Source: a virus. From it: DNA of 38,418 nt. The stretch lies in the IMG/VR virus record IMGVR_UViG_3300042898_000804, positions 1 through 38,418 of that record, one strand, 5' to 3'. The notes beneath the pieces were generated by a model. The model had not been told where the DNA came from. It saw nothing but the letters and a program-made list of their open reading frames with translations, and made no database searches. A program made the position numbers and the translations under genes. Positions 34,289-37,353 of the stretch are shown here, in pieces (position 1 is the stretch's first letter; each line of letters begins with the position of its first letter).

Positions 34289-35545
34289 TTACCCTTTTTC
34301 AAACCAGTTTCCAAACATATTAAACGACGGTACGTGATTAAAAATCTCACAAAATTCTTCTTTGGTCATTTTCCTAGCAACAGGGCATTTTGTGTATAGC
34401 TCTTCCCAAGATTCATAACTTAATTTTTCCCAAAGTTTAATATTATGCACCACATCCTCTTTAATCTCTTGACGATACAACTCACAGTTGTCTATAAAAC
34501 TAAGAGTTCTAGAATAACATATTTCTAGGTATTTGTGTAAAGATTTGGTAAAATCAATAAAATCACCGTGTTTAGGAATATTAGCCTTATCAGAAATATT
34601 GGTATATTTCGTGAAAGTTCTAAACCCCATGGATTCTAATTGTGTATCTATTAGATCATATGCGCTTAAAGAAATAAAAGGTTTACCTGACATAAGAGGC
34701 TTCCATACTTTTTCAGAAAAGAAAAACTCTGGTTGACCGTTATTTACTAAACGCCCTACATGCTCTTTAAGTGGATAGAATTTACTTTCTAATAATATGT
34801 TAACAGTAGCCTCATGCCAAGCCGGCGGAAAATTATGCGTGTATCTACTTAATCCAGTCTGTGCTGCAGGATTAATGAATCCATCGTCATTGTCAAATGT
34901 TTTTCTTAGTTTATCATATAGCTGCTCAAATGATTTTATGTCATAGGTTTCATTAAAGCCGTAATTGAGTATTTTTATAACTAGATTCTGATGGTTACCA
35001 CAAAAATAGTCGTCATCGTAATGATTGTTTAATAGTGAATAGTCTAATTTACTTAGACTTCCATTCTTATAAAAATAATAAATTAACGGAAATTTATGAA
35101 CTCTATTTCTAATATCACCTATCAAACAAATAGCCCTTTTGTTACCTACATCCCAATCAGTAAATTGAGTTTCATTTGGTAGCGCACTTCTCATCAAAAA
35201 ATACGGCAAATGAATACATGTTATGTTTGCATTTGCATTTAGTAAATTTTCTTGAAAATATACATTTGTATAGAACAGATATATATTTTTTAGATTAGGA
35301 AATAATTTTTCACAGTTGTGTATTGTTTGTTGTAGATAACTAGTATGGTCTCCAACAGTATTTAATTCATTTACACCAGTTCCCATGACCAGATCAGTCA
35401 CTGAGTTAAAGTTGTACTCTGCTGGGTCAAAACAGTTAGAAAATTCGTCTGAAAAAACTTTTTCAGTATTTGGATCGGCTAATTGATTAATCGATAGTAC
35501 CCAAATATGTTTGTTATACGGAAAACTATGTATCTGCCCTGTCAT
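34289..35545 (-). CDS. Glycosyltransferase-like protein, distant paralogue C
   Basis: 418 aa from the ATG at 35543-35545, which overlaps the gp13 stop as TAATG; an ATG five codons upstream is in frame but has no better ribosome site. The C-terminal half has FFFSEKVWKPLMSGKPFISL, then DTQLESMGFRTF, the same arrangement as in the two paralogues at 24459-26890. FPPAWHEATVNILLESK precedes it, comparable to the acceptor-side part of GT-B enzymes. The N-terminal half is divergent. No membrane segment. Placement between gp13 and dNMP kinase, both core genes, suggests insertion. Enzyme class inferred. Confidence 0.5.
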   Translation of the reverse strand: MTGQIHSFPYNKHIWVLSINQLADPNTEKVFSDEFSNCFDPAEYNFNSVTDLVMGTGVNELNTVGDHTSYLQQTIHNCEKLFPNLKNIYLFYTNVYFQENLLNANANITCIHLPYFLMRSALPNETQFTDWDVGNKRAICLIGDIRNRVHKFPLIYYFYKNGSLSKLDYSLLNNHYDDDYFCGNHQNLVIKILNYGFNETYDIKSFEQLYDKLRKTFDNDDGFINPAAQTGLSRYTHNFPPAWHEATVNILLESKFYPLKEHVGRLVNNGQPEFFFSEKVWKPLMSGKPFISLSAYDLIDTQLESMGFRTFTKYTNISDKANIPKHGDFIDFTKSLHKYLEICYSRTLSFIDNCELYRQEIKEDVVHNIKLWEKLSYESWEELYTKCPVARKMTKEEFCEIFNHVPSFNMFGNWFEKG

Positions 35546-36330
35546 TACCCTTGAATCCATGTCAGTGGTTGTGAGTAATCTACATAACGCTTTAACTCAT
35601 CAAGTAAATTTAACTGTAATTCTTTTGCTTCGGCTTTCATGGCTGCACCGTTTAAGCTAGTACCGCCGCCAGGGCCTGCTATGCTTGCAAATTTTTCACG
35701 GGCTTCACCTATGATGCCTTTTAACACGGCTAAGGTAAAGTCACCAATCCATACACCTGCACCCGGGTCTTGTAGTAATACCTCGACGGATCTCTGAACA
35801 TCAGCCCATATAAGAACCTTCTCGCCTGTGCCCTTGAAGTCACGAACGATACGCATAACCTTAGTTACAGGATCAAATGTGTAGTTTAAATAACCACCAA
35901 ACATACGTGCGGTTAATTCAACATAACCAGCATAAAAGTCATATGTTGCTAATCCGCCGGCTACGTTATAGTTTAATAGATAGGTATTAAGAATAGCACT
36001 AGAGAACGGATCAAAACTAGTAGATCCGGGTCCTGTTTCTAAGCCAACTGTTCTACGGTACAAACATCTTACATTAATAAATTCACTAGGTAATGTATAG
36101 GTATCAACATTTTTAATAACAGTGAATAATGTATATGTCTCCGCAGTTGCATTTTGTGCTCTTTGGCGGTATATCTTTATGGCGTAATTAAACGCGGCTT
36201 CATAATGTTGCGGGTCTAATTCCAAGTCAATGATATCACCACCTAAGCGCAATCGGATGTTATTAAAGAGGGCTTCTTTTAATTCATCTAGTGTTAAATT
36301 AGTGGGTGTTGTTAGTATACTGGCTACCAT
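35545..36330 (-). CDS. 13: Neck protein gp13-like
   Basis: 261 aa; T4 gp13 is 309 aa. It begins MVASILTTPTNLTLDELKEA. RLGGDIIDLELDPQHYEAAF, YRQRAQNATAET, PSEFINVRCLYRR, YVELTARMFGGYLNYTFDPV and AREKFASIAGPGGG follow in the order seen in T4-like neck proteins. With gp14 it seals the head after packaging and receives the tail. gp14 is not next to it here. AGGAAC and a late octamer lie upstream. The ribosome may re-initiate on the next gene through the TAATG overlap. Confidence 0.8.
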   Translation of the reverse strand: MVASILTTPTNLTLDELKEALFNNIRLRLGGDIIDLELDPQHYEAAFNYAIKIYRQRAQNATAETYTLFTVIKNVDTYTLPSEFINVRCLYRRTVGLETGPGSTSFDPFSSAILNTYLLNYNVAGGLATYDFYAGYVELTARMFGGYLNYTFDPVTKVMRIVRDFKGTGEKVLIWADVQRSVEVLLQDPGAGVWIGDFTLAVLKGIIGEAREKFASIAGPGGGTSLNGAAMKAEAKELQLNLLDELKRYVDYSQPLTWIQG

Positions 36331-36349
36331 ATATGTTCCTATTATCTTA

Positions 36350-36357
36350 TATTTATC
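36350..36357 (-). promoter_or_regulatory. T4-type late promoter octamer GATAAATA
   Basis: GATAAATA on the minus strand, 19 bases upstream of the gp13 gene. It separates gp13 expression from the structured RNA region upstream. Confidence 0.6.
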
Positions 36358-36388
36358 TGGTTACATATGATTGATATTCTTAGGCAAT

Positions 36389-36415
36389 GGCGAGTAGATA
36401 TAAAATCTACAAGCC
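36389..36415 (-). other. Hairpin between the structured RNA and gp13
   Basis: GUAGAU and AUCUAC (36405-36410 and 36394-36399) pair around a UUUAU loop, extended by GGC/GCC (36413-36415 and 36389-36391) across a small internal loop. On the minus strand a six-U run lies before, not after, the stem, so it is not a normal minus-strand terminator. It may mark a processing site. Confidence 0.45.
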
Positions 36416-36471
36416 AAAAAACATTCTTGAGGAACTATAGGCGATGATGAATTAAAAGATTATGATGGAGG

Positions 36472-36756
36472 ATTGTCTATGTCACACCGACCCCGTGAAG
36501 GGACTTTTCCGCATTCGCTGTTAAAGTGTAGGTATATTCATCAGGATTCTACACACAGCCCAGGCCCTCTATCGCAATTACTATGACCTGGCAACTATCA
36601 ACTGTTAAGATATGGGAAACGTTACTCAGCAAAGGTGAGGCGTTTAAAGCATCCAAGGGTAGTCCCATAAATTTGTGTTGGTCACACGTCTACCGTCACT
36701 GCACGATGAGGACGGAATTTCGCCGCATTTCCAGGTAGCGGAACCCATAGACCAAT
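36472..36756 (-). ncRNA. Candidate structured non-coding RNA of unknown class (about 285 nt)
   Basis: This gap (36331-36765) holds no convincing gene. On the minus strand it folds by eye into a branched structure closed by a long-range helix, 36746-36756 with 36472-36481 (10 pairs, one bulge). Nested inside, without crossing, are: 36738-36741/36723-36726; 36711-36715/36693-36697; 36684-36687/36675-36678 with loop GACCA; 36663-36669/36611-36617 enclosing a hairpin at 36618-36644; 36585-36591/36560-36566; 36549-36559/36517-36531 (11 pairs, UUUA bulge); 36500-36504/36490-36494. G-U pairs in two helices exist only on the minus strand, which fixes the orientation. No tRNA, tmRNA, RNase P or group I intron core motifs were recognised. 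It starts nine bases after the nuclease stop codon. Confidence 0.6.
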
Positions 36757-36765
36757 GATTGCTAT

Positions 36766-37353
36766 TTAAACAAATTGAAATAAATCGTTGAAAGTCGATT
36801 TAGCCATAACTTTCATTTTCTTCATTCCAGAGTCTGGGATACGATGAGCATATGTATTACCAGACTTCCATTCAAACACTCCGTACTGACCACCAACGAT
36901 TGTTCCTGGGCCGGGCCCACCTTGCTGCCTCAAAATACTCCTAGCATTTTCATATGAGTCTTTTAACCGTTTTTGAATATCGGGATCTCGAAAATCGTAC
37001 ACTGACTCATTCGTAACAACATTAAATGTGTTATCATATTCTACACGATTTTGTTGTTGTAGTTTTTGGCATATAGTTGATTGTTCGTACGGGGTGTTGA
37101 TAATATTGTCATATGTCATTGTCCCAACAGTATGGAATGCCCTGCTATCTCGATTTCTAGTTTTATTTTCTATATTTAAACCTGGAATATCTACTCCTTG
37201 CCCGGCATTCATGGAAAATCCCATATCAGCAAGATGCTTTTCGTAAAATTTACCAACATTACCCTCGTTACCCTTACTTTGTTTCGGCAAAACTAGCGTG
37301 TCAGAACCAGTATTTAATTTCTTTATTTTAATGCGCTTATCAATCTGTGCCAT
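36766..37353 (-). CDS. Putative PD-(D/E)XK endonuclease (MutH/Sau3AI-like)
   Basis: 195 aa. GNVGKFYEKHLADMGF is followed by AGQGVDIPGLNIENKTRN: Asp in VDIPG and Glu-x-Lys in IENKT give the D...ExK layout seen in MutH and Sau3AI (D-x-P-x-L-x-[IV]-E-x-K). SRAFHTVGTMTYDNIINTPY and an YDFRDPDIQKRLKDSYENAR helix follow. A C-terminal GQYGVFEWKSGNTYAHRIPD part may bind DNA. It would cut DNA, possibly at specific sites, in host degradation, recombination or defence. It starts directly after the MazG stop with AAGGAG upstream, and is followed by the structured RNA. Nuclease activity and specificity are inferred. Confidence 0.6.
   Translation of the reverse strand: MAQIDKRIKIKKLNTGSDTLVLPKQSKGNEGNVGKFYEKHLADMGFSMNAGQGVDIPGLNIENKTRNRDSRAFHTVGTMTYDNIINTPYEQSTICQKLQQQNRVEYDNTFNVVTNESVYDFRDPDIQKRLKDSYENARSILRQQGGPGPGTIVGGQYGVFEWKSGNTYAHRIPDSGMKKMKVMAKSTFNDLFQFV

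What the first reader, a model, noticed from the sequence alone, without database searches (positions are those of the whole stretch)
36472..36756. Unclassified branched RNA between the nuclease and gp13 genes
The largest gene-free stretch of an otherwise packed genome folds, on the minus strand, into at least eight nested helices closed by a 10-pair long-range helix 275 nt apart. The 11-pair stem at 36517-36559 and the 7-pair stem at 36585-36591/36560-36566 abut and could stack. G-U pairs present only on the minus strand fix the direction. No known phage RNA class was recognised by eye; the large lake/phage RNAs (GOLLD, ROOL) are candidates that cannot be excluded.
Basis: seen in the sequence. 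Interest (0 to 1): 0.85.

Follow-up and report, generated by a model that had tools for sequence, protein, structure and literature searches.

The report
Unreported pseudoknotted RNA of jumbo phages
Between two genes of an uncultured giant phage lies a roughly 385-letter RNA that about 70 different phage sequences share, whose shape is shown by matching mutations, which belongs to no catalogued RNA family, and whose tail can apparently pair in two competing ways.

Summary
On the minus strand, 36373-36756 (384 nt, about 100 nt longer at the 3' end than stated) encodes a structured RNA. The window's sequence alone folds no better than shuffles (z +0.58). Homologues settle it: about 70 distinct relatives in IMG/VR phage contigs of up to 364 kb show tree-aware covariation. 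All 18 top-scoring of 84,255 column pairs are canonical pairs in one model. No Rfam match; none found in the bacterial loci returned or in named phages. It is accessory: absent from three relatives of 249-352 kb. No protein co-occurs in a small sample. Two features are unusual: the P6 loop and the 3' terminal strand each have two mutually exclusive, covarying partners; and two ~9-nt direct repeats near the 3' end change together between phages, with no complementary partner found. Best reading: a new family of free-standing phage RNA with a bistable or oligomerising 3' domain, analogous to but not a member of GOLLD/ROOL. Function is inferred, not shown.

The parts
36373..36756 (-). the whole conserved RNA (384 nt; 5' end at 36756)
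   Evidence: homologues in about 70 distinct viral sequences, loss of conservation on both sides
36750..36755 (-). H1 5' strand UUGGUC, pairs with GACCAA 36678-36683
   Evidence: 6 of 6 pairs with double changes, 2 significant; high covariation
36678..36683 (-). H1 3' strand GACCAA, flanked by GUG/CAC (P4, crosses H1) that changes together in relatives
36723..36746 (-). 5' pseudoknot: P2 (36738-36741/36723-36726) with H2 (36743-36746 GGGU / 36733-36736 ACCU in the P2 loop)
   Evidence: P2 3 of 4 pairs significant; H2 3 of 4 pairs with double changes (GGGC/GCCC, GAGU/ACUC in relatives)
36693..36715 (-). P3 hairpin CCGUC/GACGG
   Evidence: 97% canonical
36611..36669 (-). P5/P5a/P5b composite hairpin
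   Evidence: P5 4 of 7 pairs significant; P5b changes CUCA/UGAG to CUAC/GUAG and CUGU/ACAG in relatives
36560..36591 (-). P6 hairpin; 17-nt near-invariant loop 36568-36584 AUAGUAAUUGCGAUAGA is the proposed hub
   Evidence: 6 of 7 stem pairs significant; loop nearly invariant
36517..36559 (-). P7 hairpin, abuts P6; loop holds PK1 5' strand GAUGAAU 36536-36542
   Evidence: 6 of 11 pairs significant
36454..36508 (-). P8 domain with inner hairpins P8b and P8c (nearly invariant GACAUAGACAAUCCUCC)
   Evidence: P8 3 of 5 pairs significant; P8c covariation
36446..36452 (-). PK1 3' strand AUUCAUC, pairs with P7 loop
   Evidence: 7 of 7 pairs with double changes, 97% canonical; cognate-swap z -10.6, 0/300
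36440..36445 (-). site 1 AUCGCC, pairs with GCGAU of the P6 loop
   Evidence: 98% canonical, 4 of 5 pairs with double changes; swap z -2.9, 1/300
36422..36432 (-). direct repeat copy 1, CCUCAAGAAUG
   Evidence: changes together with copy 2 between phages, 0/2000 swaps reach it
36386..36415 (-). terminal hairpin P9; its 3' strand 36386-36399 AUCUACUCGCCAUU is also the PK2/site 2 strand for the P6 loop (mutually exclusive)
   Evidence: P9 swap z -8.6, PK2 swap z -5.8, both 0/300; PK2 92% canonical, 2 significant pairs
36374..36385 (-). direct repeat copy 2, GCCUAAGAAUAU, at the 3' boundary of the RNA
36350..36357 (-). T4-like late promoter match GATAAATA between the RNA and the gp13 gene
   Evidence: ATAAATA invariant in 14 aligned loci; same motif elsewhere in the window
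35545..36330 (-). downstream neighbour: head-tail adaptor Ad2 / gp13-like
   Evidence: PHROG 211, E 2.6e-21
   Evidence: no PHROG or Pfam match; clear relatives adjacent to the RNA only in the window, L002 and L243

Best explanation
It is a free-standing, trans-acting phage noncoding RNA of about 385 nt, the type of a new family. SHOWN by comparative sequence: a compact multi-pseudoknot core (P2/H2, H1, P5, P6, P7, P8, PK1) on the minus strand; and an unusual 3' domain in which the P6 loop GCGAU(AGA) pairs either with site 1 (AUCGC, directly after PK1) or with the 3' terminal strand UCUACUCGCC (PK2), while that terminal strand alternatively closes the local hairpin P9. These pairings cannot all coexist in one molecule, yet all covary. 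INFERRED: the P6 loop is a hub. State 1 has the P6 loop on site 1 with P9 closed; state 2 has P9 open and the P6 loop on the terminal strand, either within one molecule (a bistable switch or assembly checkpoint) or between molecules (a strand-swapped homo-oligomer, as GOLLD and ROOL proved to be). Also inferred: it is transcribed with or from the MazG side, upstream of the late promoter of gp13, and works without a dedicated phage protein. What it acts on is not known.
For: About 70 distinct homologues. Tree-aware null: 9 pairs at E<0.05 among all 84,255 pairs, and all 18 pairs with E<1 are canonical pairs of the model; more are significant when only model pairs are tested. Cognate-versus-swapped duplex tests support PK1, PK2, P9 and site 1 while control pairings are flat. 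Distant relatives show whole-strand replacement: PK2 GUGA/UCAC (L261), GCAA/UUGC (L253), GGGUAGA/UCUACCC (L296); PK1 AAUGUU/AACAUU (L178), CGUGGUGG/CCGCCACG (L291), CUAAC/GUUAG (L268). No protein present in 4/4 RNA-bearing and 0/3 RNA-less large records. A late-promoter match separates it from gp13, and the downstream gene differs in other phages, arguing against a gp13-specific leader. Precedent: covariation-detected long-range contacts in GOLLD and ROOL turned out intermolecular (PMC12286853).
Against: No expression data. Site 1 support is the weakest (z -2.9). Covariation cannot tell intra- from intermolecular pairing. The direct repeats are not explained by this model: neither copy pairs detectably with the tract between them nor with anything else in the RNA. 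The protein co-occurrence test used only seven records.
Confidence: 0.5

Rival explanations
1. A cis-acting leader or attenuator: the bistable 3' domain controls readthrough or processing of the MazG-to-gp13 transcript.
For: Conserved position before gp13 in 48 distinct loci; mutually exclusive 3' helices look like an expression platform.
Against: A late-promoter match lies between RNA and gp13; no terminator-like site in this part of the window; other phages carry it before unrelated genes; many relatives keep MazG-gp13 without it.
Confidence: 0.15
2. An RNA-guided element that reads its own 3' end as DNA: the P6 loop is complementary to one strand (TCTACTCGCC) and copy 1 is identical to copy 2, so it would pair with the opposite strand, like the split guides of IS110 bridge RNAs.
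For: P6 loop/3' strand complementarity and copy1/copy2 identity both covary; G in copy 1 against A in copy 2 is the commonest mismatch, 16 cases; presence/absence in the same interval; nuclease-like ORFs, judged by eye, next to it in a few loci.
Against: No recombinase or other protein co-occurs; repeats also change together among RNAs at the same locus, without a new insertion; copy 2 not seen in empty sites; single copy in nearly all records.
Confidence: 0.1
3. A ribozyme (self-splicing or self-cleaving) whose guide loop docks two equivalent sites, site1-copy1 and site2-copy2, and removes the ~50 nt between.
For: The two sites occupy equivalent positions relative to the P6 loop and carry the same adjoining sequence; multi-pseudoknot core with nearly invariant unpaired segments.
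Against: No Rfam intron or ribozyme match, even at E up to 10 in the window; it lies between genes, so splicing would restore nothing.
Confidence: 0.1
4. A divergent member of GOLLD or ROOL.
For: Phage-borne, large, ornate RNA.
Against: No Rfam match; ~385 nt; no tRNA genes near.
Confidence: 0.03
5. Conserved only as DNA or by chance; no RNA function.
For: Single-sequence folding energy is ordinary.
Against: Tree-aware covariation and G-U bias on one strand.
Confidence: 0.01

Closest known systems
ROOL RNA
   Same: large structured RNA of phages and prophages, unknown function, long-range contacts supported by covariation
   Different: no Rfam match; shorter; no tRNA neighbours; found here only in viral contigs of jumbo-phage type
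GOLLD RNA
   Same: large structured phage and prophage RNA of unknown function
   Different: GOLLD members often exceed 800 nt and lie near tRNA genes (PMC12286853); neither applies here
Kayvirus lnc001/lnc002 (phage K)
   Same: long noncoding RNAs of a lytic myovirus, seen by RNA-seq (PMC9241854)
   Different: about 600-1150 nt, next to tRNA genes, host Staphylococcus; the blastn scans of the phage collection with this RNA found no phage K match
IS110 bridge RNA (from own knowledge)
   Same: two internal guides that read opposite strands of one DNA site, the formal pattern of P6 loop plus copy 1
   Different: no recombinase gene, larger, target recognition untested

Membership tests
GOLLD | match to the Rfam covariance model | tested here: not met
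GOLLD | length often above 800 nt, near tRNA genes | tested here: not met
   384 nt; no tRNA in the window or in 20-kb pieces around the RNA of G005, G006, G010, G007
GOLLD | homo-oligomeric nanocage | not testable with these tools
   needs cryo-EM or native mass
ROOL | match to the Rfam covariance model | tested here: not met
ROOL | homo-octamer | not testable with these tools
   needs cryo-EM or native mass
group I / group II intron | catalytic core matching Rfam intron models | tested here: not met
   no intron match at E up to 10 in 36300-36800; none at gathering score in eight distant loci
tmRNA / tRNA | ARAGORN tRNA-like domain and tag reading frame | tested here: not met
RNA-guided mobile element (bridge RNA, HEARO-like) | constant association with a recombinase or nuclease gene | tested here: not met
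   upstream ORF is variable; no protein in 4/4 RNA-bearing and 0/3 RNA-less records
RNA-guided mobile element (bridge RNA, HEARO-like) | guide matches DNA flanking the insertion, visible in empty sites | tested here: inconclusive
   copy 1 resembles copy 2, but empty sites are too diverged to show the target
cis-regulatory leader of gp13 | same downstream gene and same transcript | tested here: inconclusive
   gp13 in 48 distinct loci, other genes elsewhere; late-promoter match in between

The most novel reading that the evidence does not exclude
The RNA recognises DNA at the 3' end of its own gene on both strands, the P6 loop pairing with the coding strand TCTACTCGCC and copy 1 with the template strand of copy 2, and so directs recombination, homing or priming there: a protein-poor, RNA-guided locus in jumbo phages.
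Probability: 0.07. Interest if true: 0.95.

Novelty: new variant of a known kind. Interest (0 to 1): 0.72.

Why it matters
Large ornate phage RNAs such as GOLLD and ROOL are structurally striking but functionally dark. This adds an unrelated family, widespread in environmental jumbo phages, small enough (about 385 nt) for chemistry and cryo-EM, with a fold already resolved to pseudoknot level by covariation. Its competing, covarying pairings and its co-changing direct repeats make concrete predictions (switching, oligomerisation or nucleic-acid targeting) that a few in-vitro experiments can separate. It also shows that a minimum-free-energy screen would have discarded a real RNA.

Tried and rejected
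(1) Thermodynamic z-score as evidence: uninformative. (3) Explaining the direct repeats by alternate pairing with the U-rich tract between them: single cases look good (L013, L079) but swap tests are flat (z 0.8 and -0.5; z -1.3 and 0). (4) A third, complementary site for the repeats in the RNA or within 3 kb of flank: none. (5) A co-occurring protein: none. (6) An origin-of-replication role: the RNA is not at GC-skew extremes in four large records; not excluded. (8) Named phages: blastn found only an E 0.4 hit in Erwinia phage pEp_SNUABM_52 that lies antisense inside a coding gene and short hits in the flank of L436; six whole named jumbo phages are negative with the covariance model. (9) Literature searches found no description of this RNA (open-access papers only).

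Full report
What the window is. The window is a 38,418-bp IMG/VR virus record. Its genes are those of a T4-like structural module: tail sheath, head-tail adaptor Ad2 (gp13-like), MazG, deoxynucleotide monophosphate kinase, a TnsA-like (gp4-type) protein, clamp-loader-like and ClpB-like ATPases. The nearest named sheath proteins are 46-48% identical and belong to jumbo phages Phosso, Atu_ph07 and the PA5oct group. No named phage is close.

Checking the observation. The interval 36331-36765 holds no gene on the operon's strand. The minus strand of 36472-36756 folds no better than dinucleotide shuffles (z +0.58), nor does the plus strand (z -0.21). On energy alone the finding would fail. There is no Rfam match at gathering score, and only chance-level snoRNA matches at E up to 10.

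Homologues. Fetching loci around relatives of the neighbouring gp13-like protein and scanning IMG/VR with conserved motifs gave 69 distinct homologues by profile search, plus L556 and a second copy in one 277-kb record. Pairwise identity among the first 14 falls to 65%; later ones are more divergent. Named phages are negative by blastn, and six whole named jumbo phages are negative with the covariance model.

Covariation. RNAalifold on 14 sequences already gave 27 pairs with double changes. On 69 sequences I used a null that redistributes each column's parsimony changes over the RNA tree. Nine pairs reach E<0.05 in the search over all 84,255 pairs, and every one of the 18 pairs with E<1 is a canonical pair of one structure. 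Testing only model pairs, P2, P5, P6, P7 and P8 have several significant pairs each, and PK1, PK2 and H1 one or two. P4, P5b and P8b score poorly there, probably because the alignment is gapped at those places, and the P8c pairs in that script were mis-assigned; the counts are the better guide for these. G-U cells outnumber A-C about 3 to 1 in supported helices, which fixes the strand.

Architecture. The P7 loop GAUGAAU pairs with AUUCAUC (36446-36452) as PK1. The conserved RNA does not stop at 36472 but runs to about 36373.

The unusual 3' domain. The near-invariant P6 loop (AUAGUAAUUGCGAUAGA) is complementary to site 1 (AUCGC, right after PK1) and, by up to 11 pairs with two bulged C, to the 3' strand UCUACUCGCCAUU. 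That same 3' strand closes the local hairpin P9. Duplex energies of cognate strands beat those of strands swapped between phages for PK1 (z -10.6), P9 (z -8.6), PK2 (z -5.8) and, more weakly, site 1 (z -2.9), while control pairings are flat. Swapping does not remove shared ancestry, so these z-scores are supporting evidence beside the tree-aware test. Divergent members replace whole strands: GUGA/UCAC, GCAA/UUGC, GGGUAGA/UCUACCC. These pairings exclude each other in one molecule, so at least two states, or pairing between molecules, appear to be selected.

The direct repeats. CCUCAAGAAUG (36422-36432) and GCCUAAGAAUAU (36374-36385) change together. The best nine-base identity averages 7.56 for cognate copies and 6.55 for swapped ones (0 of 2000 swaps reach it). 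Here too shared ancestry contributes, so the clearest evidence is the set of divergent phages whose repeats differ from one another yet match internally: L296 AGUGACARU, L278 AGCGACAAU, L268 GUAUGRUU, L556 AGGUAAURUUG, L185 AAAAGAUAGU, and the two paralogues of one phage, AAGAAURUG and UGCAUGUG. In that hand-made table 12 of 17 members without AAGAAU are identical over the first six bases. Pairing with the U-rich tract between the copies is not supported; no complementary site was found in the RNA or within 3 kb. This stays unexplained.

Distribution and partners. The RNA is accessory. It is present in 15 of the 80 loci nearest by gp13, single-copy in ten large records, double in one, and absent from relatives of 249, 352 and 333 kb (records may be incomplete). 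In RNA-less phages MazG runs into gp13 across a short spacer with a GATAAATA late-promoter match. gp13 is the downstream gene in 48 distinct loci; other phages have other genes there. Comparing four RNA-bearing with three RNA-less large records, no protein was in all of the former and none of the latter; the sample is small and diverse.

Interpretation. That this is a real, conserved, minus-strand structured RNA of about 385 nt is close to certain. That it matches no Rfam family is tested. That it is a free-standing RNA rather than a leader is likely, from the late-promoter match in between and the changing neighbours. That it toggles or oligomerises through the P6 loop is an inference from mutually exclusive covarying helices; the precedent is that long-range covarying contacts in GOLLD and ROOL turned out intermolecular (PMC12286853). 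What it does for the phage is not known.

Limits. The alignments are sequence-based; E-values rest on 20 null replicates; contigs are often fragments; no expression data exist here; metagenome contigs could not be scanned; the paper library is open-access only.

Noticed in passing
L245, L195, L244, L236, L185, L193, L223, L178: about 20-100 nt downstream of the RNA: A second recurring two-hairpin element, e.g. GACCGAACUUAGCUUGCUAAGUGAAGGUAGAUGACUUCGGUCAUCU, lies between the RNA and the next gene in several relatives but not in the window.
   Followed up: no
window 36357-36350, 29563-29556, 25709-25702, 23960-23953, 21000-20993, 12708-12701, minus strand: T4-like late-promoter matches (G/TATAAATA), several of them upstream of structural genes; no TATAAATA on the plus strand.
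   Followed up: partly
L255, L260, L273, L293, L251 against L243, L165: The P6 stem exists in two sequence types (GNGUC...GGGCNC and AAAAGAU...AUACUUUU) combined with otherwise similar RNAs, suggesting module exchange by recombination.
   Followed up: no
L004, L007, L092, L188, L190: immediately upstream of the RNA: A terminator-like hairpin with a U-tract (e.g. CGGGCCACAACGCCCGUUUUU) ends a few bases before the RNA 5' end, so how the RNA is transcribed is unclear.
   Followed up: no
L435 and L436 (277-kb record G007): One phage carries two divergent copies of the RNA with different direct repeats.
   Followed up: partly
L293 and L196, ORFs directly upstream of the RNA: A GIY-YIG-like ORF (L293) and a putative homing-endonuclease-like ORF (L196), judged by eye, sit just upstream of the RNA in the interval that gains and loses genes.
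   Followed up: no
L419 14624-16288 (Phosso): A Ro-like RNA-binding protein is annotated near the tail sheath gene of the nearest named relative, which lacks this RNA.
   Followed up: no
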